A stretch of 64,000 bases of DNA, from positions 930,001 through 994,000 of the forward strand of contig CP021226.1 in assembly GCA_003999685.1 (NCBI GenBank), read 5' to 3'. The position numbers were made by a program, and so were the translations under genes. This document shows, in pieces, positions 10,279 to 44,673 of this stretch (position 1 is the stretch's first letter; every line of letters begins with the position of its first letter). The notes beneath the pieces are model-generated. The model did not search any database. It saw only the letters and a program-made list of their open reading frames with translations, and was not told the origin of the DNA. The DNA comes from Taiwanofungus camphoratus (lineage: Eukaryota; Basidiomycota; Agaricomycetes; Polyporales; Taiwanofungaceae).

Positions 10279-10280
10279 TA

Positions 10281-11613: not shown

Positions 11614-13184
11614 CCGTATTGCTTTCCCCTTGAATATCCATGGTCCAGAACCATGGAAGGGATGTCCTCCTCTCTCCTCTTTTATTGGGATCCACCACTG
11701 CGGTGCTCTCTGTGCAGAACCTGATACTTGGCCAGAAGGCCGGCTGGGGCCTCAAGAAGCACCAGGGCCTTCCGGGCCTTGCTGTACACCCTGGCATGAT
11801 GCTGCAGGGTTTTGTCTATGGTGTTGACATTCTGCCATGCCCTGGTCTTCCTCTGCTGGGACTTGGCATGGCGCACTTTGGTGCAGAACAAGAATGACTT
11901 TTGCCCGATGGCGATCTGGATCTGATGAAGGGCATCATTGGCCTGACCTTCCCTGAGATCCATCTCCTGCTGCAGAAGCACTTGAAGGCCTGCCTGGCAG
12001 CACCTGTCCACTCCGGTGGTGGATGGAAGGGAGAGGGATGAGTATTCAGCCTCCACCTCAGGGTTGACCCCTTGCGAACTGGGCACCTCAAAGGGATTGT
12101 CCATCTCAGTGACATCCCACTCCTCACCCAGATCCTGGTCTGGTGGTAAAACCTAATCTTCCCACTCCTCCCCATTGTCATCCATCAGGCCGGCCATGTA
12201 CCTTGATCTTTGAGACTCAAAGCTGTCGATCCTCATTTGCAGCTTCCTCCTTTTTTCCACCAACTGGATCTTCTGCTGTGTGGTCAAATTCTGGCCCATG
12301 GATCTGACCTCGGCGGCCAAGGAGATTCTGCGCCCATCATGAGAGGATGAAGATGTTATGATACATGGTGCCACTCACTGTGTCTCCTGCACCTTCAGGC
12401 CCTGAGTCAACCATCCAACAGCCCCTCAGGACAAACCCAGGTGGGGCTCCTTCTCGGCCAGCCTCAGTTGGATGTTGGCCTGGCTTAGTGCTGAAGAATG
12501 AAGGCCGATGTTGAAAAGGAATGGTTTCAGCTGCATGCCGATGCACTTGCCTTTCCTGAGCTCCACATCAAAGACATCCATGGCTTTTTCACCCTTCAGC
12601 CTGTGTTGTTGAGCCTTTCCCATCTGCTGTTTCCACTGAACCAGCAAAGTGGGATCAATGCTGGCCTCCATGGCCTGATATGACCTTTTGGTGTCTGTCA
12701 GTATGGGCTTGATGTTCTTGTACTTCCTCTGCAAGGAAGACACTGTGTGGGATGCCCTGGGTCAGCCGAATCCACTTATCGCTGGGATGGGACTGTCATA
12801 CTGGTGTTGATGATCTTCTTCCAGTTGGAGTCATTCATGTGCTGGTTGAGAACCTCCTTCCGGTGAGAGGTGGCCATGCCTCTGGTGCTGCTGGACACCT
12901 TGTTCAGAGAAGACCAAAGAGTCTCGAGGATCTCCCCATCCACCAGGCCGGCATCGGGGATGAAGCTGGGTGAGTATCGAATGAAGCAGGCATCCTGGTG
13001 CCCATGCACATGGAACAAGCCGATGCCCTTGACAATTTTGAGACCTTCAGGCATCTGAAGATAGGGATTTGCTGGAACTGCTTCAGCAGATACTGACCAT
13101 ACTGACAGTTGATGTCATAAAGCAGGAGCATCCTGCCAATGTCCTTTGTGTTGTACCCAATGGCATTGGACAGGGAGTAGTCCA
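11614..13184 (-). pseudogene. KDZ transposase, C-terminal segment
   Basis: This is the last part of a KDZ (Kyakuja-Dileera-Zisupton) transposase in several minus-strand exons. Recognisable blocks, in protein order, are MDYSLSNAIGY, LLLYDINCQYGQYLLKQF, a GHQDACFIRYSPSFIP-like block, VDGEILETLWSSLN, LREGQANDALHQIQIAIGQK, and near the end VDPNKRGERRTSLPWFW. The RNase H-like catalytic fold of this family spans this region. The protein is cut off at 11614 by LTR A1, so the extreme C-terminus and the left transposon end are missing. The segment resumes on the other side of the chromovirus at 20142. Frames are not continuous between some blocks, partly because of introns and partly from decay. Confidence 0.85.
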
Positions 13185-13683
13185 TGATACAATTTCTTTT
13201 ATCGCATATCCTATCGGTCGGACCTCGGATCGGTCCCATGACCTTTCGCTTCTAGGACGGGCCTCGGATAGGCCCAGCTTCTTCGCGCAGCATCTTGACT
13301 CGTTGCTGCTTACGGTACGGGCCCCGGTTACTCATAGACACTGACTCATATCGGGCCCCGCTTACACATTCCGCCTTACTTACGCTTACTCATGCTGATT
13401 CTTAGACCACGTGCCATGGTCCGTGCACAGGGTAGAATACATATATAAGGCCCTGTACTTTGTAGGTCGGACCTTAAGTTCGATCTGGTTATCAAGTAGC
13501 TAGTTACCACTAGCAATCTTATACTCGTATCTTGCGACCTCTCGCTTCGTACTTGAGTACTCGCTCGACTCTATCGACTTCGCCCAGGAGGACATACACA
13601 GTGTCCGTAAAGCCTCACTACTATCTCTAGTAGCCAGGTCCTCACGTTCGAGGCTTCCCGATCGTTGATACCAGTTTGTATCA
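13185..13683 (+). repeat. Chromovirus 5' LTR
   Basis: The 499-bp repeat matches 19643-20141. A TATA-like sequence (catatataaggccc) near 13440 is a plausible promoter for the element, and a CACGTG core lies just upstream near 13410. Confidence 0.9.
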
Positions 13684-13784
13684 AAAGATCGAACTTACGC
13701 TAAGTCGCCCCTAGTCTTATCTAGTAGGGCTAACCGTTAGACACCACGTCTACCATCGAGACAGTCGACCCCACCGCTTGGGGA

Positions 13785-15107
13785 TTGCCGACTCAAGTAA
13801 ACAACACGCCGCTTCTGTACGATCGTTTTCGTTGGACTTTCGTTGGCCAGAACCTCGATCCGATCTATCTGAACTCCCCACTCGCGTGGGCAGGGACAAT
13901 TTCGGCTCGACGAGCACAGGAGAAATTAGCCTCCTATTTCAGACGTAACCCTCCGCCAGATGGAAGAGACCCAGCTGGTTTCTTTCCCGTGTCGATACCT
14001 TCGACACCGTTGATAGCCACCCCAACTACTCCCACGTTCCCATCACTTCCTTCCACACCCGTAACACCTACCACTCCTACCACGATGGCTACTATCGCAA
14101 CAATGACCAGGGCGGAGCTCGAGGCGCTTATAGCGCACCTTTCGGCGCAACAACATCAGGGGAGTCAACCCCTTAAGCTCGACATTCCTGCACCGGAGCC
14201 GTTCACCGGGCAAGGAGAAGATCTGGAGCGTTTCCTCCAGCGGGTGGAGCACTACCTCACTGCCACCAACAATCAAGGGTTAAGCGATGATGCAAAGATT
14301 GCTTACACAGTCGCTCTCATGAAAGGAGGGCAGGACGCACATATCTGGTGCGATACGTTTTACGAACGGGCCGCGGGAGGGCATGCTCCCTACGCTAGCT
14401 GGGACGTATTCAAGGCGAGCTTGCGACTCGTGTTCCCTGAGCACGAAGGAGTCCAGCGGGCTCACCAGGTGCTAATGGAGTTGCCGGCCAAGCAGCTAAA
14501 CAAGAAAACCAGGGTCAGTACAAAGATGTACGTGGAGAGGTTCCGACTCCTGGCAGAGAAGGCCAAGTTAAAGGACACCATTGTGGGCCTCCAAGGCCAA
14601 CACACCAAGAACGATTACCCCACGTTAAGGGCGATCTTCATCAAAGGTCTGGACCGCCAGATCTACACGACACTCGCGGGCCGCACCAATACAGAACGAC
14701 CCAACTCCATGGAGAAATGGTACGCTGACGTTCTCCACCTCGATGCCGTCTACAGAGGGATCGACCAAACCCTCTCGGCCACCGCCGACGTCGATTACGG
14801 CGAACCCATGGAAGTGGACGCACTCGTTACCCCGCGTCCCACACCGTTCACTAAGAAGTGGGAAGACGGATGCAGCCTCAGCGAGAAGGAAAGGAAGTAC
14901 CACATGGACAATCGTCTATGTTTCTACTGTCACAAGAGAGGACACACAGTGTGCAGGTGTCCAAAGAAGACGGCCAAGACAGGCCAAAGGAACACCTCGA
15001 AGGAACCCGAGGCACGATCCCCCATGGATTTCCGCTCGTACATCAAGACGCTCTCATCGGATGAGAAGAGGGCGATGTTTGAGGAGTTAGGAACGGAGGA
15101 TTTTTAA
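13785..15107 (+). CDS. gag: Chromovirus gag
   Basis: The 440-residue Gag would form the particle shell. The N-terminal part is proline/threonine rich, the middle has the capsid-like block around PEPFTGQGEDLERFLQRVEHY, and the C-terminus carries one canonical zinc knuckle (CFYCHKRGHTVCRC, spacing CX2CX4HX4C). It lies 101 bp upstream of the pol frame. Fossil element; described only by parts. Confidence 0.9.
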   Translation: MPTQVNNTPLLYDRFRWTFVGQNLDPIYLNSPLAWAGTISARRAQEKLASYFRRNPPPDGRDPAGFFPVSIPSTPLIATPTTPTFPSLPSTPVTPTTPTTMATIATMTRAELEALIAHLSAQQHQGSQPLKLDIPAPEPFTGQGEDLERFLQRVEHYLTATNNQGLSDDAKIAYTVALMKGGQDAHIWCDTFYERAAGGHAPYASWDVFKASLRLVFPEHEGVQRAHQVLMELPAKQLNKKTRVSTKMYVERFRLLAEKAKLKDTIVGLQGQHTKNDYPTLRAIFIKGLDRQIYTTLAGRTNTERPNSMEKWYADVLHLDAVYRGIDQTLSATADVDYGEPMEVDALVTPRPTPFTKKWEDGCSLSEKERKYHMDNRLCFYCHKRGHTVCRCPKKTAKTGQRNTSKEPEARSPMDFRSYIKTLSSDEKRAMFEELGTEDF

Positions 15108-15208
15108 AGGGGCAGGGTGAGCCGACGCAACCACTGCCCATATCCATTTCACTGTCCCGTGTTGTACTTGTAGTCCGGAATGATAGAGCTCTTCACATTC
15201 TGATTACT

Positions 15209-18200
15209 GTGGGACAAAAAGCCGTCGAAGCCCGCGCCTTTATCGATAGTGGCGCATCAGGAATATTCGTGCATCCACGATTTGTTAAGGAACACAAGTT
15301 ACGGACTGAGGCGTTACCACGCCCAATACCAGTGTTCAACGTGGACGGCACTGCTAACAAGCAAGCGCTCATCAACAAACGAGCCTTACTGTCGTACAAA
15401 ATCGGGAACGAGCCCCGGTTTGTCAAGGCATACGTAGCCAGTATAGGGAACGAAGACGTCATCTTCGGACATACTTGGCTCAAACTCGAGAACCCCAGTA
15501 TCAACTGGAAGGGAGGTCGTGTGGAACTGAAGCACCGCATAACCTTACAGGAATCTCGAGAGTGGAAGAAGGGGATCATCACGCAACGAGTAGCGCGACT
15601 GGAGCTGAAGAAACTAGCTGAACAGGAACAGGAAGAAGCCCTGGATCCCGTGCTAGACTATGAGGTAGACTGGTCAGCACCCCCTTGTCCACAGGTAGCG
15701 GCATTCCTCGCCGAACGAGACAAACGCCTCAAGCAACAATGGCAGCCCACCATTGAGGAGGTAGAGGACGAAGGAGACTTCGAGGTGATCGACACCATGT
15801 CTCCTGTTTTACCGACGACAGACATGTCTAGGCAGACGGCACGCCACGACATCTCAATCGCATCCCTGGTAGAAGAATCGGTCAACGGTATCACCCTGGA
15901 TCAAGCGATGGAAACGATCGACGACGATGAACTGGTCATAGCGTTCATCGAAGGAGATGATCGGATCACAACGTATGGACGGGACTCATACCCAGCGTAT
16001 CGAGACGCACCTCTTACGGAGGAGAAGTACCCTCTTGATGGAAACTATTGTCGTCTCGAAAATGGTCTTATCTGGCAGGTCACGCACGACATCGGTCAAC
16101 TCACCACGTCCACGGAACTCGCTATCAAGGAACACGCCAAGAAAGAGGAGAAACCAGTCACGGAACTTGTCCTCGAGTACCTCCATGATCTCCTCCCAGT
16201 GTTTGACAAAGCCAAGGCAGCGAGACTTCCCCGACATTCGGAGTTTGACCACGAGATAAATCTCAAGCCAGATTTTAAGGACTTCAAGCAGTCGACGTAT
16301 TCTCTTAACAGGGATCAACAAGCGGAACTGGATAAATTCCTCGAAGAGAATATAAAAAAGGGGTACATCCGACCGTCCAAATCGCCACTCGCAAGTCCGT
16401 TCTTCTTCGTGGATAAGAAGGACGGCAGATACCGACCATGCCAGGACTATAGGGAACTCAACGAGGGAATGATCAAAGACAGATACCCTCTTCCCCTCAT
16501 AACAGAGCTTCTGGAACGCCTCAACAACGCTACGATCTTCACGAAGATGGACCTTCGTCAGGGATACAACAACCTTCGCATCAAGGAAAATGACAAATGG
16601 AAAGCGGCTTTCGGCGTTCCAGCGGCAGGAGAAGGACCTCCCTCGTTCTACGAACCCCTGGTAATGTTCTTCGGGATGTGCAACTCACCGGCAACGTTCC
16701 AACGAATGATGAACACGGTCTTCGCAGACATGCTCAAGGAAGGATGGTTGGCAATCTACATGGACGACATCCTTATCTACTCGACAGACCCCGAGGAGCA
16801 TAAGAAGCGAACACGGCAGGTTATCGAACGACTTCGAGATACTGATCTGTATCTCAAGCCAGAGAAATGCAAATTCGACGTGCAAGAAGTCGAATTCTTA
16901 GGCATGATCATCCGACCCGGACAACTCGCCATGGACCCAGTCAAGGTAGCCGGCATCAAGGATTGGCCGATACCTAAGAACCTCAGGGAGGTTAGGTCGT
17001 TCATCGGATTTGGGAACTTCTACTGTTGGTTCATACACCGCTTCTCGCATCTGGCCCAGCCTCTGGTCTCGCTTATGTGAAAGGACGTCAAATGGCACTG
17101 GGACGATGAACAGCAGGAAGCTTTCGAGGCACTGAAGAAAGCTTTCCTGGAACAACCGGTTTTGCAGATGCCTGACCCAGAGAAGCCGTTCGCTTTGGAA
17201 ACGGATGCATCGAAGTTCGCCACGGGCACCGTCCTCAGGCAAAAGGACGACAACGGCGATTGGCATCCATGCGGTTATATTTCCCAGAGCATGACGCCAG
17301 CGGAACGAAATTACGACGTCTATGACCGAGAACTCATGGGCGTCATGAGGGGACTCAATGAATGGAGTCACCTTCTCATCGGTAGCCCGTATCCAGTCAC
17401 GATCTATAGCGACCACAAGAATCTGACGTACTGGAAAACGGCACGGAATCTGAATCGAAGGCAAGCGCGATGGGCTCTTCGCTTGTTCGAATTCGATTAC
17501 AGGTTAATTCATGTCCCGGGCACGCAAATGGTGCAAAGCGACGTGCTCTCCCGACGCCCCGACCACGATGACGGTTCATCAGACAACCAGGATGTAACCG
17601 TCCTACCAGACAAGGTATGGGCAGCAGCAATCAACACGAGTCTCCGGGCTTCCATCGCGGAAGCATGCGTAAATGACTCGATGTATACGGAAGGGATGCG
17701 CAATGCACGAAACGGCTCAAACGACCACTGGACAATTCGAGACGGAGACCTCCTCTACGATAATTGGGTGTATATTCCCCTGGATGAGGATCTACGACGA
17801 CAAACGGTCTCGAATTATCACGACCTCCCCTCCGCCGGCCACCCTGGAATTCAGAAAACCCTCTTGTCTATTCGACGAGACTACTGGTGGCCTGGAATGG
17901 CTGACTTCGTCACACGATACGTCAAAGGTTGCGGCACTTGCCAGCAAATGAAAGTTAACACGCACCCCATCTGACCAGCCCTACTCCCGATCAAGTCCGC
18001 GCAGCACGCCACTCCGTTCAGCACGTTCTGCTGCGATTTCATTACAGATTTGCCGACTTCAGAGGGCTACGATTCAATTTTGGTCGTTGTGGACCACAAC
18101 CTTACGAAGGGGGTAATTTTCATTCCATGCAACAAAACGATTGACGCATCAGGAACAGCCGAGGCATTATATCGCGAGGTATACAAGTGGTTTGGTCTTC

Positions 18201-19075
18201 CGGACAAGATCATTAGCGATCGAGGACCACAGTTCGCATCAAAGGTATTCCAGGAGCTCTGCCGTATGACCGGAGTCAAGTCGGCCATGAGCACAGTGTT
18301 CCACCCTCAAACGGACGGAGAAACGGAATGAGTCAACCAGGAACTGGAGATCTACCTGCGATGTTTCACGAGCAACAACCCGGACAATTGGTCGTCGCTG
18401 CTGGGCTCAGCACAGTTCGCTCACAACTCGCGTGAGCATTCTACAATCAAGGCATCACCCTTCAAGGTCATGATGGGCTATGAACCTCGAGGGATTCCCG
18501 TCGTACACCCCAGATCCGACACGCCGGGCGCTGCTTATCAACTACGGAACTTGCAGAAGATTCGGGAAGACGCACACTCAGCAATGGAGCTAGCACAGGC
18601 GGTGTTAGCAAGACGCGTGAAACCCAAAGGAACGGGTTTCCACAAAGGACAAAAGGTATGGCTAGACTCACAGAATCTAAAGCTGCCATACCCGACGAGG
18701 AAGTTGGCTCCCAAGCGCGAGGGACCCTTCGAAATCACGGACGTTCTAGGACCAGTGTCTTACAAGTTGAAACTCCCGACGACATGGTGAGTGCACACCG
18801 TTTTCCACGCCGCGCTTCTCTCGCCATACACCGAGATGGACACCCATGGTCCCAACTACACGGAACCACCACCGGAGCTTATCAGTGGCGAAGACAACTA
18901 TGAAGTCGAAGCTCTGGTCGGACATCGTGAGAACCGCCGAAGGAATCGCCGAGAATATCGAGTCAGGTGGAAAGGTTACTCATCCGCCGATGACTCATGG
19001 GAACCGGAAGAGAACTTAGCCGGTACTGCGGACGAGCTGCTAAACGCATATAAGCAGCACAAGAACTTACGATGA
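15209..19075 (+). pseudogene. pol: Chromovirus pol (protease, RT, RNase H, integrase, chromodomain), broken
   Basis: Domains in order: aspartic protease (FIDSGASGIFVHP) near 15240; reverse transcriptase with AIYMDDILIYS near 16755; RNase H (LETDASKFATG) near 17200; integrase zinc-binding region (SAGHPGIQKTLLSIRRDYWWPGM in pieces) near 17830; integrase core near 18050-18330; chromodomain (YEVEALVGHR, then YRVRWKGYSSADDSWEP) near 18900-19020. The chromodomain is the mark of the chromovirus lineage and is thought to steer integration to particular chromatin. The gene has about four breaks. Confidence 0.92.
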
Positions 19076-19368
19076 GTACAATAAGTCGCATTTTCACCCC
19101 ACTCATCGCTCGCATGTCTCAGTCAAACAGTCCTTCATCCTCGTTCACTCGCTACGGTCCGTGCTACCTCTGTGGTAGCACTCGTCACTCGCACAGGACG
19201 TGCCCCGACTACAAATGTCTCCGCTGTAGTCGCCCATCGCCTGGGCACCTTACGCGCGAATGCACCGCCGTCAACTACGCATTCACCTACGACCTGGTAC
19301 CGCCATATCATCCAGAGTGGTTCCTGCATGTCGTTAAACTGCGAGGGAACGACCGTGCACATCGTTAA
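19072..19368 (+). CDS. Extra small ORF of the chromovirus with two zinc knuckles
   Basis: The 98-residue frame starts at an ATG that overlaps the pol stop codon as ATGA. It holds a canonical knuckle CYLCGSTRHSHRTC (CX2CX4HX4C) and a second, longer one, CLRCSRPSPGHLTREC (CX2CX6HX4C). The rest is serine rich at the front and has a DLVPPYHPEWF block after the knuckles. Such knuckles usually bind nucleic acid. Standard chromovirus maps end with pol, so this is an unusual third ORF. It could be a captured nucleocapsid-like fragment. Confidence 0.6.
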   Translation: MSTISRIFTPLIARMSQSNSPSSSFTRYGPCYLCGSTRHSHRTCPDYKCLRCSRPSPGHLTRECTAVNYAFTYDLVPPYHPEWFLHVVKLRGNDRAHR

Positions 19369-19642
19369 ACTACAACGAACGACCGACATGTCGTAAAACT
19401 GTAAAGTTTGAGCTGAAAGGATGCTCACGGTTGGAGGGGTCATCCCCTATGGGTTCAAGGGTCATCCCTTATCGGTCACGGTGAAACACCCGCTCGTCAC
19501 TTCCAGGAAAGTTTTTCAAGTTCATCCTCGGAAGTTCGTCAAGTTCGTCGACGGTCGTCAAAGTTCGGCTCGGAGAGACTCGACACGTCCCCATTAGAGT
19601 TTAGTTGATTGACCAGGCGTTCAATCATAAGTAGGGGGGTAA

Positions 19643-20141
19643 TGATACAATTTCTTTTATCGCATATCCTATCGGTCGGACCTCGGATCGGTCCCATGAC
19701 CTTTCGCTTCTAGGACGGGCCTCGGATAGGCCCAGCTTCTTCGCGCAGCATCTTGACTCGTTGCTGCTTACGGTACGGGCCCCGGTTACTCATAGACACT
19801 GACTCATATCGGGCCCCGCTTACACATTCCGCCTTACTTATGCTTACTCATGCTGATTCTTAGACCACGTGCCATGGTCCGTGCGCAGGGTAGAATACAT
19901 ATATAAGGCCCTGTACTTTGTAGGTCGGACCTTAAGTTCGATCTGGTTACCAAGTAGCTAGTTACCACTAGCAATCTTATACTCATATCTTGCGACCTCT
20001 CGCTTCGTACTTGAGTACTCGCTCGACTCTATCGACTTCGCCCAGGAGGACATACACAGTGTCCGTAAAGCCTCACTACTATCTCTAGTAGCCAGGTCCT
20101 CACGTTTGAGGCTTCCCGGTCGTTGATACCAGTTTGTATCA
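19643..20141 (+). repeat. Chromovirus 3' LTR
   Basis: This 499-bp repeat is preceded by a purine-rich stretch (gtaggggggtaa) that fits the polypurine tract and is followed by the target duplication gtcca. Confidence 0.9.
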
Positions 20142-21482
20142 GTCCATGTTCATCTGTCTCTCCCCCTTTGAAAGTCCATGACAGAGTGTGGAACAAAGCA
20201 GCCATGCCGAGGACAGGCAGTGGCTCTGATCCCGGTGGACTCCAGCTTGTGCCAGTCAGCATTGGCCAGGTTGATGGCCTTGTGGTTGTGACAGGTGCCC
20301 GGCTGTGCAATGGGAAGAAAGACACATGAGATCATGGGCATGGGGATCAGTGGGATGGGAACCTACCCCCTTGAGCTCCTTGGCCACCTGGAGATGGGCC
20401 TTGTACCTGCCATTGGCCACAAAGAAGCCAGTGCCGTTGGTGATCTCCACATCGTTCCTGGGCCTTCTCATCTTGAGATGTTCTGCAGAGAAGTTGCCAT
20501 CCATCATGAACCCTCGAGTGTACACCGATCTGGACATAGTCAGACCAAGCACAGCCAGACCGGGGTCAGATTGCTTACTAGTCAGAATGTTCCTTTCAAT
20601 CTAGGTCCAGATTGACTCCAGGTTGTGGGCAGACAGCGCAGAAAAAGGCAAGGTCACCTTCTCCAGGCTGCTGTCTGGATGGGTATCCAAACTCATGTTG
20701 TATGAGGTCCTTGAGATGAGACCACTGTCTGGTGACCCTGAGGAATTGCTGATACCAGTCCTTGACGGTGGGGTACCCCATGAGCATTGGCAATCTCCTG
20801 ATGGGTGGCGGTGGGAGCACTCACCGGCACGGCTTGGGGGAAAACGGGATTGGTCACCCTCCTGAGCTGGCTGTAGAAGTTGAGGGCAGAGGTCTTGCAT
20901 TTGAGGTTCTCCAGCAGGAAGTCATTGAGGACCTTGAAAGTGAAACATGTTTTGATGTGCCTGTGGCTGGCCAGGTAGAGGCCCATGTCCAGCAGCTGGT
21001 CTTCATGATGAGGGGCATTCACACACCCGCACCAGTGAATGGGAAGTTGGTGAATGCCAGAGGTATTGACCACGACCATCATTTAATGGTTGCTTCTGAT
21101 GTCAAATGCCACAAAGGCATGATTCCTGTCAATGTACTCTGAAGGCGATCCCAATGTTGCATGAGGTATGCCCTGTGTCTCACTAATGGCACCGCTATCT
21201 TCACCGGCAGCACCAAGATCATCGCCGATGGTGCTGCACTCATCACCAACGGCACCCCACCCATCACCGATGGCACTGCAACCATCGCTGACAGCGCCGC
21301 CACCATCGCTGCTGGTGCCATGACCATCGCCGATGGTGCTGTGACTATTTTGGACGGTACTGTGTTCATTCCTAACAGTGCCATTGGTATCATTGTGTGG
21401 TAATTCCCAATTATCTAGTTTTTGAATGAGCACACACAAGATGCTGTTCTTGAGCACACCTCTGAGGGCACCACTCACTCGG
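20142..21482 (-). pseudogene. KDZ transposase, middle segment
   Basis: This is the middle of the KDZ transposase, minus strand, between the two gypsy insertions. It contains the end of the CxC2-type cysteine-cluster region (HQLPIHWCGCVNAPHHEDQLL), the adjoining block FTFKVLNDFLLENLKCKTSA, a CPQPGVNL block, DGNFSAEHLKMRRP, GTGFFVANGRY, and ATACPRHGCFVPHSVMDFQRG, which leads into the catalytic part beyond the chromovirus. Near 21160-21400 there is a run of degenerate 8-residue repeats (type IGDGCSAV), a 24-bp minisatellite inside the gene. The gene cannot be functional as it stands, because gypsy elements split it on both sides. Confidence 0.85.
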
Positions 21483-23234
21483 TGATGAGTCCCGTAGCCT
21501 CCTGGCCCCCGAATCGCGATTTTAGAAGCTTTCTAATCCCCCAACCGACCACTCTAAGACTCTCCTACAGCCTACGACAGGAGGGATAGGTTCCTATAAT
21601 ATTCCTAACGCCCCCTCTCCTTCCTAAACCCTCCTAACACCCTACGAAGTCTTGCGAAGTCACACGAGGTGCTACGAGATTTCGAATGCTAGACGCGAAG
21701 TCCCTAACTCCTGCTAAGTCCACTATCGGACACTGCCGGCCCTCCCATACTGTTCCATTGGATCTAGGTCCTATCTACTACGTCACTCATCCCGGGCTTA
21801 GCTAAGAAGTCTTAGCTAAGTCTCTCCTAGCTCTTGTGATTGCAGCTACCTCCGATAGGCTCCGAAACGGTCCGAAGTTCCGGAAGTTGGACTTAGGAAG
21901 CCTTGTGCACCCCCATGGGTCTCGATCCTATGCCATAAGGTCATCCTAGGACGTACCCATATGACCCTCCACCCATTTAGGACACCTCCTGCCCCGATTA
22001 GGCCAAGTCCCGCTGCTAAGGACTTCGTGCGCTCTTAGCCCACTAAGATAGGTGATCACGGCGCATGGCTGCTCTCAGATAGTCATCCCGCCCTCGTGAA
22101 TGAACTTGGTCACCTTTCTACCGTACGTAGTTCCCCTGTTTCAGTTCCTAATTAGTTCCTATCCTCCTCGTGTTCACTTCGGAGTCCATGCGCTTTAGTA
22201 CACATTTCGGACTCGTAAGGATCGCTTCGCGCAAGATTAGTTCACCTCACGTTCCCCTATTTAGTCAGAGGTAGTTTACTATGTACAAGAGAGACCCCTC
22301 AGTGCATGCTTCTCTCTTTGGAATACCAGTTCCCCGGTAGCTCCGATCTCAGAAAAGCACCGCGAGTACAACCTTAGGAACGGTCCTAAGCCCTTAAGTC
22401 TCCACCCCAGCTCCGTCTCAGTACCTTTGAACTACGTCTACGCTTGTGATATATCTACGAACCACATCTACGCTTTCCGAACTACACACTACGATCCACG
22501 AAGTCACGGTGACTTCGTGCCCTTCAGCACCTATCCGGTGGGCCTCCGTCTTAGTTATACCCTTAGGCTCACGTTGCGTCATCCCTACGTTCTACGAATA
22601 ACCCTACGACTCCCCCATAGCCTTCATTACAGGCTATAGTACATCTCTCTACGCCCTCGAACTCTCCGACCCACACCTCGACGTCATCAGACACTTCAGA
22701 TCTTCCAGCAACCTCGTTCCCTCATTCCTATTCCAAGTATTAGCTCTCCGAACCATCTGACCTCTCCTACAAGTCTCCTACGCCAGCCAAACCTCGCCCA
22801 CCTCGCTCTAACAAACCTCTAAGCCTTACACCCTTTAGCTAACTCTAGCTAAAAGGACTTCGCAGCAGTCTCGTACCCTCTGCCGCTTAGTAGAAATTAT
22901 AGTCCATTGGCTTATTGCTCCCTAACTCTATACAGCCTACGAAGTCAGCTCGCGCGATTTAGCTAAAACTTCGAAGGACTTCGCAGAATCTCGAAGGACT
23001 TCGCGTACTTCGGAGGGCCTCGCAAGGCCTTAGGGATAGTATAACACTTAGGAACAAGATCCTGTTGTGCAGGACCCTTGACCCCTTACTCCCCTATTTA
23101 CAAAAACAAGACATACAGGTTTCCCGGTATCATACAGGTTGTAGCTCCTACCCTCACACCACCACAGTTATCACACTACCCCCAGCCACGTTGCGGAGCA
23201 CTCCCTAGGTACCAGGGTCCCCTAGGTCGTATCA
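21483..23234 (+). repeat. Family B 5' LTR (1752 bp)
   Basis: It is nearly identical to 32096-33847. It is unusually long for a fungal gypsy LTR and rich in short motifs of the type ACGAAGTC and CGAAGGACTTCGC (for example 22930-23030). A frame of 70 residues (22427-22639) is open in both LTRs but has no coding signature. Confidence 0.92.
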
Positions 23235-23274
23235 TTTCTGGAGCCCACCGCGAGGGGGAGCAGTCAAGATTTCA

Positions 23275-31927: not shown

Positions 31928-32095
31928 GATGGGGAAGGGAAAGGCAAAAGGGGAGAAAGGAGAAAAAGATAAGAGGCACCCACAATTAGCTTCTATCAGG
32001 ATATCGCCCGCTTCGCAGATCGGACGCGATAGGCTACAAGTTCCCACGGTCGCGCACACTGACTGAGGACAGTCAGGATTTCAATAGGGAGGAGG

Positions 32096-33847: not shown

Positions 33848-34667
33848 TCGGCACATCATCTGGCCCTGGGTTTGTGAAGACCAGAATGTCATCCGGCACC
33901 TCTCCCCCCTCCTCTTCCAACACCCAGTCATCCTTGGCCTCTTCCTCGTCAGAGGACATCCCATCCTGTCCGTCCAGGGTCATGGGGCAGGCACTCCCCT
34001 CATGGCCAAGCTGGATACATGCTCCCACATCTTGCAACCAAGCCGGGGCAAAGAAGGTGTTATAGGTCCATTTCTGGATCCTGTGGAATGGTAGCCTTGC
34101 ATGTTCCAGTTTGCAGCACTCCATACAAAATATGGGTTTGGCCAGGCAGTCCAGACAGCGCCAGAGTGCCCCCTTCATGCTGCACCGGGTGCAAGAATGA
34201 CTGGAAGAAGGGTGTGATCATGGAGAGGGTTCTGTGTGGTGGGGGGCACCCTCATGCATGTACAGTCTATTTAAATAATGCTCTTTGCTCCCCAGCCACT
34301 CCCTCATAAGATCAGGTTGAGACTGTGAGAAGAATGTGAGCTGTGATGCCATTCCAGTCCCATTGGCTCAGACGATGCCCACCTGAGTGGATGGAAACAC
34401 AGGCTGAGAAATATGATCCTCATAGACAGGTGGATCATATCCTGCATTGGCATGCCTGCTTGTTCTTGGAGTTTGGAGAGGGGTGCTCCTGGTAGGAGTG
34501 CTGGGCAAGGACAAGCCAGGCTTATCTTTGATCTGCACCAACTGAGAAATCACGCCTCTGGAAGTCTTTTTCTGCTTCCATTTGACCTCTTGGATAATGG
34601 GGGAGCTCAATCTTCTTTTTCTTTTTCCCATCAGGTTCATCTGTTTTGTGGTGAAGAGCGGAAACAC
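33848..34667 (-). pseudogene. KDZ transposase, N-terminal segment with CxC cluster
   Basis: This is the start of the KDZ transposase gene. The first exon (from 34667 or an inner ATG at 34631) codes MGKRKRRLSSP and a basic serine/threonine-rich leader typical of these proteins. The next exon (about 34178 to 33852) has the cysteine cluster RCLDCLAKPIFCMECC, then HARLPFHRIQKW and LGHEGSACP, the CxC2-type zinc-binding domain found next to KDZ transposases in mushrooms. An acidic spacer (MSSDEEEAKDD) follows. The family B gypsy element cuts the gene here and the protein resumes at 21482. The gene is divergent from companion gene 1, about 180-220 bp apart before LTR D landed. Confidence 0.85.
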
Positions 34668-34675
34668 AGGGAATG

Positions 34676-36230
34676 TGTTACGGGGGAGTCTATGCTCGTA
34701 GGTGACTACCGTGATGGGGAGTCGTTGAGTAGTCAGGTGTGAAGTGTAAATGAGGAGTCAGCCTGGCTGATGATGAGTACACGTCTAAGTCTTCAACCGC
34801 TAGCCCAACGGTCTTGAGAGAGTTGTGGGCTAAGTCACAGCCTAAGTCCTAGTGTAGTCACAAGGATATAGACGGTCTAAGGCGACCCGTTGAATAGACA
34901 AAGGTATAGGGGCCTAAGCCCAGTCGTAAAGTACAAATGGTAACAACGGCACCAAAGTACACAGTGTAACTAAGGAGGACAAGATTGGGGTGCTTCGCAG
35001 TGAGCCAACCCCTTAAGTACTATGGTGGGTTTAGGGCAAGCCAGCCCTCACTCCCACAGGTACCAGCACCTAAGCGTCCATAAGTCAGAGGCCCGAGTGG
35101 TCCCTTCTGAGAAACAGTCCATAACTAAGCGGGTGACGGTCAGCCCGTCAGGAATAATGGTGATAATTGTAAGTGTACATGACCCGCTGATGCGCACTAT
35201 AACACTCCAACCCCAACTGGGTATGACCTAGAGAAGCTGGAAGGCTATAGAACTAGTTAGTGTGGAGGGAGAGTCAGCAGCAAAGGGTTCCTGATCTCAA
35301 ATGGGTCGAGAGACGTCTACAAAGGTCTTCGACGACCCTCTACGTGTGTCGCGACTGCTCGACGTAGCTTCGATGCGCTACTATGCTGTACTATACTAGG
35401 GAGAGACTTAAACGTGAGAACTTAGCTGATACGCAATCCTTCGAAATACTGTAGAAGGCGGACTTGGGTTAGAGAGAGATGCTAGCGCAACCCTTCGATG
35501 TGGCTCGAAGGTGGACGTAAGAATGAACGCAACTTCTTCGACGGATGTCGAAGACGGACAAGATGCAACCCTTCAAGATACTGTAGAAGGCGGATAGTAG
35601 ACGCAACTCTTCGAACGTAATCAAAGACGGAAGGACGCAGTAGAACGCAGTAGGTGACTAAATCGAAGGTGCTCTTCTTGAGCTCTGCAGGATAGGGGAA
35701 AACTTCTCTGTTGTTCCGAGACACCATACCTCGCGTTTATACTACTGTACTATAATGTAAGGCGCATCGGGAGTGGCATAGTATGAGTGGCATCCTAACT
35801 TCTTGCATACTACGAACTACGGAGTGGCATGAAATATACTAAGCCAAGACCTGGGGCCGTAGCGTTATCGAGTACATCGAGTGGCACGTCGTAGCAGATC
35901 GAGCGATATCGGAGTGGCGAGACCGGTCACGTGCGAGGACATTGAGTGGCAACTGCATGTGGCGTATTGTGCGTAGAGGGACCGGTACACTGGAACATCG
36001 GACCGGAACTGGTGGAGTGACAGTGGCGTGATTCGAGGCTATCGGAGAGTCCCACGGTGGCTTTTCGGGCTGTATCAGACACGTCGAGTGGCGTCAAAGC
36101 CATGACTAAGGTCCTAGGGTCGAGTGAGGGCGCTCCGCGGGGCCTAGAAGTGCCTGGCACCTATCACCGCTAGTCCGGTATAGTGAAGAGAAATGAAAAT
36201 GTATGTTCGCACCATTACCACCTTGTAGCA
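34676..36230 (+). repeat. Solo LTR of family D, interrupted by a solo LTR of family A
   Basis: The unit begins TGTTACGGGGGAG and ends CCTTGTAGCA, with a 5-bp target duplication gaatg on both sides (34671-34675 and 36231-36235). Removing the nested LTR A and its duplication leaves about 570 bp. The last 60 or so bases recur at 52990-53053, where they end in TGTAACA, giving TGTTAC...GTAACA ends. No internal coding region is present, so it is a solo LTR. Confidence 0.8.
35188..36166 (-). repeat. Solo LTR of family A (A2), inverted
   Basis: This 979-bp inverted copy of 10640-11613 has a 4-bp target duplication ccgc (35184-35187 and 36167-36170). It lies wholly within LTR D and is therefore younger than it. 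The internal repeats of GAAGGGTTGCG type are conserved with A1. Confidence 0.85.
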
Positions 36231-36409: not shown

Positions 36410-39086
36410 ATGCCTAGGAACTCCATCCCTCAGACTCACAAGGATGCCATTGATGCTTTGTTCCCTGAGTGGAACCAGGCAGACAGAGCAGCCCAAGCGC
36501 AGTTCCTTTAGGATGTGTACGAGGATCTGGAGGAATTGGAGAACAGGAAGCTGACAGATGAGGAGAAAGAGGTGAGAGGTGCTGCTCTACATGACAGAGG
36601 ACGTGCTCATGATCATCTTGATGCAGGCATTAAAGAAGTACACCAGGAACAAGCAGGAGAAAAAGGCAGAGAGGAAAGAGTTTGATCTGAAATCATCATA
36701 CACCTGGAGGAGTGTGGTGGTGACCCATGGCAAGGAGGAACTGATGCGCAGGATGGCCATTCTGACTGGGGGTGTCAAATCAGGCAGCCCTCAGTGGATC
36801 ACCCATTACCAGACCGTGAAAGCACAGTTGTGTGCTGCTGTGTCAGAAGAGCAGAAGGCTGCCTATGTGAGGGAAGCTGAGATATGGAACACAGAGGGAG
36901 CTCCTGCAGATGTCCAGATGGCCAGGGTGGAGAAGCATGGGGAAAAGGCAGTCAAGGAGTTTGCCCAGTACGTCTTCAAGATGATGGGCATGAGGGTGTA
37001 CATGCTGGGCACGTACAGGGGAAAGAATGCCAAGATCTACACCACAGAGTGAGCGTGCAGTCCTCAATTGTCCTCTCCTCTCTCACCTCCAAGCCCCAGT
37101 TTTGGGTTCAATGACCAGTTGGGCGGTGGGGACAAGGTGGAGGACAAGGTGGTGGACTGGAACTCAGAGGAGTATCTGAGGTTGTTCAAGAGATATGCAA
37201 ACACCCAGTTCAGTGAGTGTCAGAGCCCATGTTGTCCACCATCCTGGTAGCCATTGACACCGGGACAGCACCGGAGCAGGAGGTTGATGGGGAGGAGGAG
37301 CCAAAGAAGAGGAAGAGGAATACGGAGCCGGCACTGGAGCTGGACACCACAGAGGATGGGGAGCCCCTTCTTCCATCTCAGGAGGTCATCTCAGTGGCGA
37401 GCCTGAATCAGAAAAAGCAGTTGATAGCACAGTTTGTGTGCATGCATTATGGTATGTCCCCCATCCCTGTGGCTGAGCTGCTGGGCTGACTGGCAGATTG
37501 TCTGGGATGTCCCATAGTCAAGTGCTGTGGGATGCCGGAGGCGAAGGTGCCTTGGGGGGTGTTGCAGTCTGAGCAGGACAAATACATCTCAGTGGTGTAT
37601 ATGCCAGAGGACATCACTCTGAAGGACTGCACCAAGATGATCCAGGCAGATGTGGACCGGCTTCTGAACTTCTGGTCTGACCGGCAGGATGACCCAGAGG
37701 TGGACTACACCTTCAAATTCAAGGCATGGAAGGGCAGGGACAAGGAACCTCAGCTGCCAGTGAAGAGGGTCCCATCTCGGCCTAATCATCTCAAGTGGGC
37801 AGGCCATAAGAACAAAGGCAAGGAAAAGGCGGTGACGCCACCTCACCCTGAAGGTGAGGAAAACACCACCGAATCAGACAAAGACAGTAGCCATCATGAT
37901 GAGTCAAGTGACATAGAGAATGAGAATGAGCCGGGGCCTAGTGAACCACATCGGTCAGGTCACACACAAAGACCCAGAGTGGCGGGCAGAGGTAGAGCAC
38001 CACTCACAGGAGATGTGGCAGTGGCAGGGCCAACGAGTGTACGCACGGCGCCGGCGGGTGCAAGTGCGGTGCCGGCGGCGATGAGTGCGACACTGGCGGG
38101 TGCAAGTGCAGCGCCGGCAGCGACAGGTGCGGCGCTGATGGGTGCAAGTTCGGTGCCGGCAGGCAGAGGTCGGCCCACTGGTAACCCTTTATCTCAACAT
38201 ACCCAATCACCATCACTGGCACATGCTGGAGGACAGCCAGTGGCCGGTCATGTGGAGGATGAAGGAAGTGTGTCAAGGACTCTTGTGCCAGCTGTACCCA
38301 GGACCAAGTTCAAGTCACCGGCAACGGTCCAAGACAGTCCTGAGGCAAGACAGAGGTATCTGCTTAGTCTGTCCTGACAGATGCCGTATCGCAACTTCAT
38401 CAAGGCCATCCCCAAACTGGTGTGTGGTTGTGCTTTTCATATTCATCATGACAGCCTCAACATCCCTTGCCCAGGCTCACATTATTGTTTCTGGCAATCA
38501 GTCTCATCAATGGGCCTGGGGGGAATGGAAGTACACCTCCCCCCACTGTACTAGAGCTGTCCACAGCAATATGGCCACAGGCTCCAAGTTCACCCAGTGG
38601 CTGTCCTCAAAGCCCTATTACACCAGCAGGGGGGACAACTTTAAGCTGGACATGGTGAAGACCCAGAACATGGCGCTGGTGATTGGGCTGATGCTCAGGG
38701 ACTTGGAGGAGGCCCAGGTGGCCAATGAAGTGGAGGGTGAGCCCACCGACTTGCCTGACTATGTTCTCAACTCAGTGCTCAGTGAGAACATGGTGGAGAA
38801 TGTCCTGCTGCCTGCATGCGATGAGATGAGGGTAGGCATAGAGGTGGTATCAGAAGACACTGAGGTGATGGGGGACAGCTCCAGACTGACCAGATCGGCT
38901 TCAAGGCATCCCCAGGCACAGCCCGGTAAGTCTGGTGGACCTGATGTGCTACCTGTGCCAAAGAAGAATGGTGCCAGTCCAAAGGAGGGGAGCCAGAAGA
39001 GGAAAAAAAATGAGTTGGAGCCTGTGGAGGAGGAGAATGAGGTGGAATCATCATCTAGGAAGAAGGGGAAGGGGGTGCCTGGATGA
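36410..39086 (+). pseudogene. KDZ-element companion gene 1, unknown function, 6 exons, decayed
   Basis: Exons: 36410-36571, 36627-37048, 37100-37212, 37269-37451, 37497-38419, 38475-39086. Introns of 45-56 bp are GT-AG and all phases agree. Two in-frame stops interrupt it, TAG at codon 34 (36509-36511) and TGA near 38376, so this copy is probably dead. Visible parts are a charged N-terminus, a block EFAQYVFKMMGMRVYMLGTY, a basic patch (PKKRKRN, a possible nuclear signal), a cysteine pair region (CLGCPIVKCCGMPEAKVPW), a low-complexity middle with alanine/glycine repeats coded by a minisatellite (38037-38170), and a C-terminal globular block (HIIVSGNQSHQWAWGEW, YTSRGDNFKLDMVKTQNMAL). It ends basic (RKKGKGVPG). 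I recognise no enzyme. It lies head to head with the transposase and tail to tail with companion gene 2, so it is likely part of the transposon. Confidence 0.6.
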
Positions 39087-39394
39087 CTCAAACCCAGGCT
39101 GGCCAACAGGGGTGGGAGGAGGACTGCGGCTTAGGGTGCATTCAGAGGAGGAAGACCAGGGTTCCAGCACCGGCAGCGATGGATGCGGCGCTGGCAGCGA
39201 TGGGTGCAGTGCTGAACCTGAGTGTTGTGGCACCAGTGGTGTTTCTGCCTTATTATGTTCTGTTTTATGTTCACCCTGAGATAGCCTAGATGGAAATATA
39301 TACACATAAAATTACTTGAAAACTACTATGTAGAGTGCTTGTACATGCAATGGTACCCTACTATTCAATATCCATGACATCATCCTCATCCTCC

Positions 39395-41736
39395 TCATCC
39401 CCATATCCACTCAACATTGCACTGACACCCCATCACCTGTGACTGAGGCTGGGCACAAGCAGAGATGACAGCAGGAGTTTCACCTGGTCCTTGTACCTCA
39501 GGATATATCACTGGCACCCTATTGCCGCTGACCGGCGCCGGATAGTAGATGACCGGCGCCGCAAGTGGGTGGACCGGTGCTGGATCCTGCAACAGCGATG
39601 CCGGGGCATCAGGAAGGGAGACCGGTGAGACAGGGGATGGTGTGGGTGACACAGAGGGTGCTGGATTGATGACAGGAGGTGAGTAAACCCTGCTTACCCT
39701 TCTCTCCATGTTTGGCAGGGAGAACCAGACTACCGGCTCCTGTTCCCGGTCGCACAGACCAGTATTCAGGTGAACCATTGCTGGATCACTTGCATCCGGC
39801 GCTGTGATGTACAGAGCCGGAGCCGGGTTCTCCTGAGACGGAGCCGGGTCATCCTGAGGCAAAGCCGGGTCATCCTGGGGTGGAGCCAGGTCGTCCTGTG
39901 GAGGTGCCGGGTCACCTCCACTCATCTTCCAGTCCATCAGACCAGAATTGTGGTCCATTGGCACCTCTTCCTGAGGCCCGGTAGATGGCCCTGATCAAGG
40001 TCAGCCAGGGTGTGAATGAAGGAACAGGGACCTATCTGGCAGGTTCAAGATGCCTGGTCCCACCAAGCCCTCCACTGCTGCCCTCAATGTCTCCACCATG
40101 AGCTCCGTCATGGCCAGTCGGCGGCGCAGGGTCAGGTTCTCGTACTCGAGCAGCTCCACCTGCCCTCCCAGATCCTCTGCAGGCATGTTCCGCAGTCACA
40201 CAAGGGTGTCACCGAGCCATGGCACATGAAGTGTCCGTGCCGGCAGGACCACAATGTCTATGTATGCCATATCTGGCCATCAATGAGGAAGGATCTAAAG
40301 CAAGAAACAAAAAACTTATTACGCTGCTTTGGTGGCATAGATGCCACCATCCCCTCTCCACCCGACCCGAACAGCTCATCAGTAGGAGGAGAAGGTGATC
40401 TCCTCCTTGAGACCACCGTCTTCCCCAGCTTCGGCACCGGAGTGCATGGCCCCGCCAGCTCCACGGCCTGTGCCCTCCCAGTCTTCTTGCCTGTTGAGGG
40501 CCGGCTGGAGGAGGCAGTGGCATTGGCCACTTTGGCGGTGGCTTGGCAGCGGCGTGTGGTGGGAGGTGGCTGGATGCATTTTGCCTTTGCAAAATGGCAC
40601 CTGTCGCAGGCCGTGACCTTGCCTGTAGGCGGCCGGTCAGGGTGGGTGGAGATGATGCACTCACCCGGCTCGCACCAGGTGCAAGGGGGGTCCTATACAA
40701 ATGTAAGTGTGAATTGGAGCAAAGAGAGAGCAACGACTCACCATTGGCCGCACCCATTCATCTGAGCGCATCGCCCCCAGCTTTCGGGACGGCCTCCCCT
40801 GCTCGCTCAGCGCCACAGACACCGACCGCGACTGCGATCATGCCCAGCTGCTCCTCCTCAGCGGCCGCCCCCACTCATCCTCTGATGGAACCAGTGTTGT
40901 TGGCTTCAGGATCCCCTTCGGCTTGTGGGGCGTCCTGGGCAATGGGCATGGCGGTGGGGAGGCGGTTGCTGGTCGCTGGGCTGGCTTCTTCTCCTCATGG
41001 CGCCGCCCTCTCTCAACCAGATTCATCCCCTCCATCTTGACGTCTTCCTCAACCATCCCCTCCTCCCAGCTCGCACCATCCACCTCCACCCTCTGTGGCA
41101 CCTCCCCGGTTCTGCAGGACTTGCATGGTCCCGCAACCTCCGGTCCCATCCTCACCTTCTTCCTTCTCTGGGTCTCCTCCTCCACCTCAACCTCCACTGA
41201 TGTCTCCCGGGTCCTCTTGGCACCTGCAACAGCTGGAGAATAAAAAAAAGTCAGTGTAAGTCATGTAATCATCATGCAGCTACTCACCATCTGCCTGCCA
41301 CCAAGTGTCCTCCATACTCTCCTCCCCCACCTCTGACACAGCACCCTCCGGTGGCTCCGAGTACCAGGGGTTGGCCTTGACTTCCGGATCGTCGGCTGAT
41401 ATGACCTCCAATTGCGCCGGCACGCCGTGCTGAGCGGCATGCGCAAACTCGCCCGCACCGCTTAGGATGATGGCGGGCACATATGGCCGCTCACCGGCAG
41501 TGGAGGCCATGATGAGGAGGTTCTGAAGGGGACACTAAAATGAATGTGTATGTAGTTAGCATGTAATGAGATAGTGGAAAACTTACCAGCTCCTGCTCCA
41601 ACCTCTCCTCAAACCAGGTCCGGCGTGAATGGTTGGGGCCAGGCAAGTGAGAGAGGGCCAGACGCACCCGGTTTGCCATCAGATAGAGGCTTTCTTGCAT
41701 GGACAGAGTAGAGGACATATTTAAAGCAGGTTTCAA
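39395..41736 (-). pseudogene. KDZ-element companion gene 2: Zn2Cys6-like and coiled-coil protein, possibly decayed
   Basis: Exons that can be joined by eye are 41736-41587, 41534-41288 and from 41232 down. A further exon starts at 40692, and later exons reach a stop at 39395. One in-frame TGA occurs near 40838 (GCA TGA TCG). Parts in order: N-terminal helix block (ESLYLMANRVRLALSHL), acidic region, CKSC pair, then a cluster CTWCEPGEC and, 16 residues on, CDRCHFAKAKC (CX2CX4C and CX2CX6C), then a basic linker (SRRRSPSPP), a leucine-heptad stretch near 40186-40060 (LLEYENLTLRRRLAMTELM), and a proline-rich tail with DDPAPPQ-type repeats. Zn cluster, linker, coiled coil and disordered tail follow the Gal4-type plan, so a DNA-binding role is a reasonable inference. 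It shares a 232-bp upstream region with companion gene 3. Confidence 0.55.
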
Positions 41737-41968
41737 TAATGAAAAGCAGCTAGATACACGTGGAAGAGGAGTGTCACAATGGCGGTGTCAACGACCGATG
41801 GACGAACGACGGCAAAAAAGATTGTGGGATGATCACATGATCGGTGCGTTCAGACACATCACGTGACCAAAACTTACTGATGCCTGCCTGATTCCTCATG
41901 TTCAATCCCAGCTTTTTTTCCATGCTGATCTTGAGCTTCAAATTCATCATTTCTGTGACCCATATACA
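41737..41968. promoter_or_regulatory. Divergent promoter between companion genes 2 and 3
   Basis: The 232 bp between the two start codons contains a CACGTG E-box (41860-41865) and a near-palindromic gatcacatgatc (41831-41842). Its size is close to that of the other divergent promoter of the element. Confidence 0.45.
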
Positions 41969-43787: not shown

Positions 43788-43827
<40 letters not shown>

Positions 43828-44395
43828 GGAGGAGGAGGAGGAGGAGGAGGAGGAGGAGGAGGAGGAGGAGGAGGAGGAGGAGGAGGAGGAGGAGGAGGAG
43901 GAGGAGGAGGAGGAGGAAGATGAGGAGGGGCAGGGGCAGGGGGATGTTATAGAGCTCAGCTCTGATGCTGGGCAGCATGCAGATCAGATGGAGGTGGATG
44001 AGGGCCAGGCTCAGGTAGGTAAGTTCTTTTTCCCCTTTTTCATGGTTCTAATAGTACATGGGCATGCACAGGCACAATTTTCAGCAGGGGGACAAGCTCA
44101 AGGGCCAGACCCCAGTGATAATGGTGAGTTCTCAATCATGGTTCTCTTATTCAACTCCTGCCTTTGCGTTCACTCATGGTTTATGTAGAATCTGTTTTTT
44201 TCAGCAGACTTGTTGAGATGGGCTGATGAGCACACTGAGACCCAAGCTGCTGCTCAGTTGGTATATGCTTATCAGCATCTCAGGGTGGAGCAGGTCAAAT
44301 CTGCTGATTCTTTGCAAAGGCTGACTGACATAAGGGACTTCAATGCCTTGGGGGTGGATTCTGTAGCACATGTACTAGAAAGGTACAAAATGTAA
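41969..44395 (+). CDS. KDZ-element companion gene 3: low-complexity nuclear-type protein, 4 exons
   Basis: Exons: 41969-41987, 42039-44014, 44072-44123, 44205-44395; introns of 51, 57 and 81 bp are GT-AG, and the frame gives 745 residues without a stop. The first 280 residues are proline/serine rich with repeated WTQLPPPP-type units. A long run of APSG-type repeats (about 42840-43230) follows, then the only globular part (PPFMYDDDVEVVSLTENVKKY, GCLVSTIYGTIIDIKRP, FGPRHPTMTSTGYREMM, FFVDEEFVTVG). Next come a serine stretch and an acidic run of Asp then Glu of about 50 residues (43784-43924). The C-terminus is helical (DLLRWADEH, AYQHLRVEQVKSADSLQRL). No known domain is recognised. Its position at the right end of the KDZ element and the intact frame suggest a real element protein. 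Confidence 0.65.
42840..43230 (+). repeat. Minisatellite coding APSG-type repeats
   Basis: Degenerate units built on gcaccgtcgggtcctagc code Ala/Pro-Pro-Ser-Gly plus two or three variable residues. The run lies inside companion gene 3 and keeps its frame. Confidence 0.8.
43784..43924 (+). repeat. Microsatellite (gat)n then (gag)n coding an Asp/Glu tract
   Basis: About ten GAT units are followed by more than thirty GAG/GAA units. They code an acidic tract in companion gene 3. The other five frames of this run give poly-Met, poly-Arg or poly-Leu and should not be annotated. Confidence 0.9.
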
Positions 44396-44673
44396 CCATA
44401 TCTACATTCCTGTTCTTGGGACTTCATGTATATCTGAACATGGCTGTGATTTATCAAAGCTTTACCCAACAGTGAGGCCTTCATTTAGGCATCAGACTTG
44501 ACCTGGCTGCTGCAAGGGCCAGGGGGCATCCCTGGAAATGAGGAATGGCTGGCCGACCCGTTGCAATGGGATGGGTCCATCGCCGAACCAACGTCAGACG
44601 GCCCATTCACAACGGGCCAAACTCAGCGTTTATTGGCCTGTTGCAACGGGGTTTTTCACCAGATGGGCTCACT
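44396..44673. other. Probable right terminus of the KDZ element
   Basis: After the last companion gene a stretch with inverted copies of acccgttgcaa (44556-44566) and ttgcaacgggg (about 44641-44651) leads up to the LTR A fragment. Such palindromic sequence is plausible as the transposon end. The matching left end is missing, so the terminal inverted repeat cannot be checked here. Confidence 0.4.

What the first reader, a model, noticed from the sequence alone, without database searches (positions are those of the whole stretch)
11614..44673. A four-gene KDZ transposon of about 12 kb with two divergent gene pairs
After subtracting the two gypsy elements and solo LTR D (with nested LTR A), about 12.2 kb remains: KDZ transposase, companion gene 1, companion gene 2 and companion gene 3, arranged as two head-to-head pairs with short shared promoters (about 180-220 bp and 232 bp). 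All have short introns, and transposase, gene 1 and gene 3 all have in-gene minisatellites. KDZ elements are known to travel with accessory genes (TET/JBP is the published case), but these three companions are not TET/JBP and I know no function for them. This is the best candidate for an undescribed system in the window.
Basis: partly seen in the sequence, partly recalled or inferred. Interest (0 to 1): 0.82.

Follow-up and report, generated by a model that had tools for sequence, protein, structure and literature searches.

The report
Worn TET-carrying KDZ transposon copy
This is a worn-out, insertion-riddled copy of a large jumping gene of a medicinal fungus whose fuller copies carry a transposase, a TET-type DNA-demethylation enzyme and four further genes of unknown function that travel with it, which makes it a useful case for studying how transposons may escape silencing.

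Summary
The four genes are there: a KDZ transposase and three companions (g1-g3) in two head-to-head pairs, 12,178 bp once two gypsy elements and a solo LTR are subtracted. But the element is neither four-gene nor TET-free. At 8 of the 13 places a TET/JBP dioxygenase gene and a further gene (g0) lie to the left. The window copy lacks both: its left edge (11614) is an LTR boundary inside the transposase gene. The right end is real (...GGGCT at 44669; 19 genomic hits, 0 in the control). No matching inverted repeat was found; left end and target-site duplication were not reached. The element is strongly CpG-depleted and its genes show dN/dS below 1. g1 and g2 found relatives only in T. camphoratus; g0 and g3 were not searched. 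Verdict: a new variant of the known TET+ KDZ transposons; companion functions are inferred.

The parts
11614..13184 (-). KDZ transposase, 3' piece as left in this copy; PF18758 match at 12824-13051; left edge cut by LTR A
20143..21482 (-). KDZ transposase, middle piece between gypsy1 and gypsy2, with 21-bp repeats at 21220-21286; the matching stretch of the C11 copy carries CxC2 (PF18803)
33848..34675 (-). KDZ transposase, 5' piece and start codon (34631), and 44 bp of the KDZ-g1 gap
36410..39086 (+). companion 1 (g1), 6 exons, 810 codons, stops at codons 34 and 593 in this copy; annotated relative P0001 (AcV5_003765)
39361..41718 (-). companion 2 (g2), about 6 exons, cysteine cluster and predicted long helix, stop at codon 258 in this copy; annotated relatives P0003-P0006
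41969..44188 (+). companion 3 (g3), Pro/Ser-rich with 21-bp repeats and acidic stretch; conserved domain at about 43310-43699; 3' exons not resolved
44545..44669 (+). right terminal region of the element, ending GGGCT
10640..11613 (.). LTR A, joins Tc1 sequence (left) to the transposase gene (right); inferred scar of an LTR x LTR recombination that removed the element's left part
44670..44790 (.). tail of an LTR A into which the right end of the element is inserted
13185..20142 (+). gypsy1, inserted in the transposase gene (TSD GTCCA; LTRs 493 of 500 identical)
21483..33847 (+). gypsy2, inserted in the transposase gene (TSD TCGG; LTRs 1750 of 1752 identical)
34676..36230 (.). solo LTR D (TSD GAATG) with nested LTR A (35188-36166, TSD CCGC) in the KDZ-g1 gap

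Best explanation
The region is one decayed copy of a KDZ-superfamily DNA transposon of at least about 16.4 kb with six genes: TET/JBP(+), g0(+), KDZ transposase(-), g1(+), g2(-), g3(+). Shown: gene set, order, recurrence, the right end, and the absence of TET and g0 from this copy. Inferred mechanism: the transposase, with its CxC2 cluster, recognises the element ends (GTTGCAACGGG-type subterminal repeats) and moves the element; the host's cytosine methylation silences copies; the TET enzyme oxidises 5-methylcytosine so that the promoters, two of them shared by head-to-head pairs, stay active. g2 is most likely a DNA-binding protein (cysteine cluster plus helical stretch); g1 and g3 are most likely partners in the transposition or anti-silencing complex. 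Inferred history of this copy: it inserted into an LTR A lying in a Tc1-type element, lost about a quarter of its length on the left, probably by LTR A x LTR A recombination, and was hit by two gypsy elements and a solo LTR.
For: Order and orientation: 11 of 11 KDZ places with at least two genes keep the order, with one orientation exception (g0 in C13); all four window genes at 8 of 13 KDZ places, of which two are a duplicate pair. TET: 11 PF12851 rows over cut-off, 8 of them left of a KDZ place; the TET exon matches CcTet structures 7vpn and 8jkk at 3e-14 with HRD and distal His aligned. CxC2 at 1.9e-23 and KDZ at 1.1e-37 in the C11 copy. Right end: 19 hits against 0 in the control; flanks part behind GGGCT in the full-length ends read. 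dN/dS in coding frame against shifted frames: KDZ 0.26 vs 0.59 and 1.38, g1 0.37 vs 0.74 and 0.72, g2 0.50 vs 0.79 and 0.61, g3 domain 0.39 vs 0.81 and 0.72. CpG observed/expected 0.18-0.39 in the element against 0.89-1.13 in the gypsy elements. Host cytosine methyltransferase domains: 5 rows over cut-off.
Against: The left end and the TSD were not reached, so enclosure of all six genes between two ends is not shown. No inverted repeat matching the right end lies left of the TET copies. No copy read here was shown to be whole: the C9c copy with clean g1 and g2 exons has a stop in its KDZ stretch and no TET row. Three g1 places and three g2 places lack a PF18758 row, and C8 and C4 have KDZ alone. 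g2 shows only weak constraint (0.50 against 0.61 in one shifted frame). CpG loss may reflect age as well as methylation. Roles of g0-g3 rest on no domain match over cut-off and both structure models failed (mean pLDDT 33.5 and 32.4).
Confidence: 0.75

Rival explanations
1. Two elements side by side: a TET+ KDZ transposon (TET, g0, KDZ) and a separate element with g1, g2 and g3, which became joined once and then spread together.
For: The left end was not found; some places hold g2-g3 with the right end but no PF18758 row (C4:1448119; C7:735013).
Against: The KDZ-g1 gap aligns without a break in other copies (for example C12:1039109-1044548 and C13:235445-241750 run from KDZ into g1), no end sequence was seen between KDZ and g1, and the two sides share a start region of about 220 bp.
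Confidence: 0.12
2. The gene set is ordinary cargo of TET+ Kyakuja elements, already present in published consensus sequences (Repbase, Kojima 2025 supplement), and nothing here is new beyond the host species.
For: Kojima reports TET+ Kyakuja in Polyporales and AG-type TET, and a third protein in TET+ Harbinger families.
Against: The parts of the text that I read name no companions for Kyakuja, the reported Kyakuja termini are CA..TG while this right end is GGGCT, and g1 and g2 found no relatives outside T. camphoratus. The supplement was not open to me.
Confidence: 0.25
3. The companions are host genes that happen to lie beside a KDZ element in this window.
For: No known domain in them.
Against: Recurrence in fixed order at 11 of 13 KDZ places on several contigs, and a shared right end beyond g3.
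Confidence: 0.01

Closest known systems
TET+ Kyakuja DNA transposons of Agaricomycetes (Kojima 2025, PMC12730594: text parts 1-3 of 7, figure legends and passages read; Iyer et al. 2014 recalled, not held)
   Same: KDZ transposase together with an AG-type-like TET/JBP gene in an agaricomycete of the order Polyporales; no inverted repeat found
   Different: Four further genes (g0-g3) beside transposase and TET; right end GGGCT, not TG; TSD unknown
KDZ1-KDZ3 of Cryptococcus neoformans (PMC12810828, passages read)
   Same: Large KDZ elements of 9-11 kb with a cysteine cluster in the transposase
   Different: They have 139-241 bp inverted repeats, 4-8 bp TSDs and CxC1 instead of CxC2; no TET is mentioned in the passages seen
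Plant VANDAL/MuDR elements with a protein against their own silencing (as cited in Kojima 2025)
   Same: A DNA transposon carrying extra genes thought to counter epigenetic silencing (analogy of working, not of descent)
   Different: Unrelated transposase; the helper named there is not a TET enzyme

Membership tests
KDZ transposon superfamily | Transposase domain PF18758 over cut-off | tested here: met
   15 rows, all over cut-off, window row E 6e-19; C11 copy 1.1e-37
KDZ transposon superfamily | KDZ-associated cysteine cluster (CxC family) | tested here: met
   CxC2 PF18803 E 1.9e-23 in the C11 copy
TET+ KDZ transposons | TET/JBP dioxygenase gene inside the element | tested here: met
   8 of 13 KDZ places have a PF12851 row on the left; PDB match CcTet 3e-14. 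Not in the window copy; enclosure by a left end not shown
Kyakuja (sublineage) | CA..TG termini | tested here: not met
   Right end is GGGCT in the copies read; left end not read. Definition
Kyakuja (sublineage) | 7-bp target-site duplication | tested here: inconclusive
   Left end not reached; first bases of the right flank of one copy were sought in 400 bases on its left without a match of 6 or more
Kyakuja (sublineage) | No terminal inverted repeats | tested here: inconclusive
   No inverted match to the right end within 5 kb left of the 11 TET rows at up to 3 of 18 mismatches, but the left end itself was not read
Kyakuja (sublineage) | Position in a transposase tree of Kyakuja, Dileera and Zisupton | not tested
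   No reference transposases were collected
AG-type TET | HxD and distal His, similarity to CcTet | tested here: met
   Alignment; activity not testable here
Zn2Cys6 regulator (g2) | PF00172 over cut-off | tested here: not met
   13.6 bits against a cut-off of 21

The most novel reading that the evidence does not exclude
g0, g1, g2 and g3 are a set of co-mobile proteins restricted to one fungal lineage that work with the element's TET enzyme: g2 brings TET and the transposase to the subterminal repeats, and g1 and g3 act on chromatin, giving a self-contained, sequence-guided DNA demethylation module carried by a transposon.
Probability: 0.2. Interest if true: 0.75.

Novelty: new variant of a known kind. 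Interest (0 to 1): 0.5.

Why it matters
TET+ KDZ transposons are known, but how a transposon would direct a demethylase to itself is open. A family with six co-conserved genes, strong CpG depletion and a culturable fungal host gives a defined set of candidate partner proteins to test. It also shows how a four-gene reading of a single degraded copy missed the best-understood gene of the family.

Tried and rejected
Rejected: an element end at 11614. Rejected: a long inverted repeat; the 30-bp right terminus gave 19 hits and a looser 18-bp scan 35 hits (12 in the control), and none of the 35 lies within 5 kb left of the 11 over-cut-off TET rows; one (C5:1777029) lies 10 kb left of a TET row that has no KDZ, and it is the right end of another copy. 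Rejected: a host-gene origin of the companions.

Led nowhere: AlphaFold models of g1 (P0001 with P0002, mean pLDDT 33.5) and of g2 (P0003 with three relatives, mean pLDDT 32.4); both too poor for a fold search, so none was made. A home-made exon finder gave poor models and was replaced by exons set by hand. The query (40209-40757 minus) proved to be a non-coding frame of g2, so its 'stops inside' column means nothing and the call serves as a locator only. A first genome patchwork had wrong orientations for some loci and was redone. In the dN/dS sets, C9b (duplicate of C9a) and C5b (interrupted) were left out for g1, and C12b (misaligned) for g2; only exons 1-3 of g2 were used. g0 and TET were not tested for constraint. 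Copies are related to each other, so pair counts are not independent.
Full report
What is in the window. Subtracting gypsy1 (13185-20142), gypsy2 (21483-33847) and solo LTR D with its nested LTR A (34676-36230) leaves 12,178 bp of one element between 11614 and 44669. It carries the KDZ transposase on the minus strand (start codon 34631) and three companions: g1 plus (36410-39086), g2 minus (about 39361-41718) and g3 plus (from about 41969). The head-to-head gaps are about 220 and 250 bp. Repeats of 21-bp period lie in KDZ, g1, g2 and g3. The copy is dead: g1 has stops at codons 34 and 593, g2 has one at codon 258, and the transposase is cut twice and truncated.

Host. The g1 and g2 searches returned only proteins of Taiwanofungus camphoratus, and a g2 relative, AcW1_010180, lies on a contig of 1,741,554 bases, the length of contig C9 of the window's genome. 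I take the window to come from the W1 assembly of this polypore (lineage). The genome paper PMC8865532 (passages) gives 33,373,109 bases for W1, against 33,194,378 held here, so the held copy is not the whole of it or is another version. A listing counts 0 occurrences of 'KDZ' in that paper.

Recurrence. PF18758 gives 15 rows, which I group into 13 places. g1 gives 17 rows at 14 places, g2 12 rows at 12 places, and DNA from g1's end to the right end gives 96 rows, with 40 of 62 candidates scored. Of the 13 KDZ places 11 have g1 and 8 have all four window genes; two of the eight are a duplicate pair on C9. Against the rule: C8 and C4 have KDZ alone; three g1 places (C7:723989, C5:2589560, C14:566713) and three g2 places (C4:1448119, C14:589003, C7:735013) have no PF18758 row, although C7:723989 is preceded by the 5' part of KDZ in DNA.

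The missing left part. Other copies continue past the window's left edge, and in 5 of 5 copies checked an open frame of the transposase gene crosses that point. In the C11 copy follow an open stretch on the minus strand (856048-856388 or so) that I read as the transposase tail, by recollection of such tails and without a Pfam match, and a further gene g0 on the plus strand (start about 854497). g0 DNA has 17 rows in the genome, at 8 of the 13 KDZ places and twice beside TET alone on C9; in C13 it is inverted. Left of g0, in two other copies, an exon reads as a TET/JBP dioxygenase: Tet_JBP at 4.2e-14, and CcTet structures 8jkk and 7vpn at 3e-14 with the HRD motif and the distal His aligned. PF12851 has 12 rows, 11 over cut-off: 8 left of a KDZ place, two beside g0 without KDZ, one alone (the control rang in E. 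coli below cut-off). From a plausible TET start (C12:1034572) to the right end the element measures about 16.4 kb without inserts (3.9 kb in C12 plus 12.5 kb in C11).

Ends. The right end ...GTTGCAACGGGGTTTTTCACTGGATGGGCT has 19 hits at up to 3 mismatches and none for the reversed control. Of nine right-hand borders printed, six end in GGGCT or GAGCT with differing flanks, two (a C5 pair) differ in the last bases, and one is cut by an LTR before the end. On C5 one such end lies inside another copy's transposase gene, and in the window it lies in an LTR A (44670-44790). The left end was not reached, and no inverted match to the right end lies within 5 kb left of the 11 TET rows. In the window an LTR A joins Tc1 sequence on its left to the transposase gene on its right, while the right end of the element lies in the tail of an LTR A followed by Tc1; the flanking tetramers are ACGC and ACAC. 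The simplest history, which is inference: LTR A into Tc1, KDZ element into LTR A, a second LTR A into the element, then recombination between the two LTR A copies, removing TET, g0 and the transposase end.

Constraint and decay. Median dN/dS in the coding frame (the two shifted frames in brackets): KDZ stretch 0.26 (0.59, 1.38; 6 copies), g1 0.37 (0.74, 0.72; 10 copies), g2 exons 1-3 0.50 (0.79, 0.61; 6 copies), g3 domain 0.39 (0.81, 0.72; 8 sequences), g3 N-half 0.55 (0.88, 0.65; 11 sequences). The C9c copy has no stop in the compared exons of g1, g2 and the g3 N-half, but its KDZ row has one and it has no TET row. CpG observed/expected is 0.18-0.39 in the element pieces and 0.09 in Tc1, but 0.89-1.13 in the gypsy pieces and 0.94 at the kinase locus. 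Over 45 pairs of g1 regions there are 6481 transitions and 1300 transversions; 1593 transitions are between CpG and TpG or CpA. The host has cytosine methyltransferase domains (5 rows over cut-off). This fits a long-methylated element; age may account for part of it.

The companions. No Pfam match over cut-off was found for the pieces of g0-g3 scanned. g1 found 2 proteins and g2 found 4, all of T. camphoratus; in the full-length searches only the best-sharing 7,997 and 7,996 candidates were scored, in the g1 N-terminal search 3,682. The search sees only relatives sharing short exact words, so absence elsewhere is not proved; g3 and g0 were not searched. g2 has a cysteine cluster (CTWC...C, CDRC...C) and a stretch predicted helical in a poor model, which I read as a DNA-binding protein; the Zn_clus score is below cut-off. 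The roles of g1 and g3 are guesses from composition.

Known or new. Kojima 2025 (PMC12730594; text parts 1-3 of 7, figure legends and passages read, supplement not opened) describes TET+ Kyakuja in Agaricomycetes, Polyporales included, with 7-bp TSDs, CA..TG termini and no TIRs. This element shares KDZ and a CcTet-like TET but ends GGGCT, so I do not file it as Kyakuja. My six paper searches listed no paper that by title or abstract treats KDZ elements of this host or such companion genes; Iyer et al. 2014 is not held. I therefore call it a new variant of a known kind.

Noticed in passing
window 6553-9337 and 54081-56889: A fungal protein kinase gene (PF17667, ORF 7068-8243) and its surroundings occur twice, 47.5 kb apart, 85-98% identical, on either side of the transposon nest.
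   Followed up: no
window 30550-31743 minus: Young gypsy2 carries two adjoining antisense open frames before its 3' LTR, with paired cysteines and no Pfam match over cut-off.
   Followed up: partly
window 11613/11614 and L068 near 2152 (C11:858153): Two unrelated LTRs sit at the same CCGT site of the transposase gene in two different copies, perhaps a preferred target.
   Followed up: no
G000 C9:1184-1206k and C9:1268-1289k: A segmental duplication about 83 kb apart carries two near-identical copies of the element.
   Followed up: no
G000 C13:232716-233894: g0 is inverted relative to its neighbours in this one copy.
   Followed up: no
window 10280-10639 and 44791-46053: A Tc1-type element with long inverted ends encloses the whole nest and has the lowest CpG ratio measured (0.09).
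   Followed up: partly
window 21220-21286, 38046-38160, 39814-39914, 42890-43232; L070 3740-3970: 21-bp-period GC-rich repeats recur in KDZ, g1, g2 and g3 and behind g0, and some match each other across genes.
   Followed up: no
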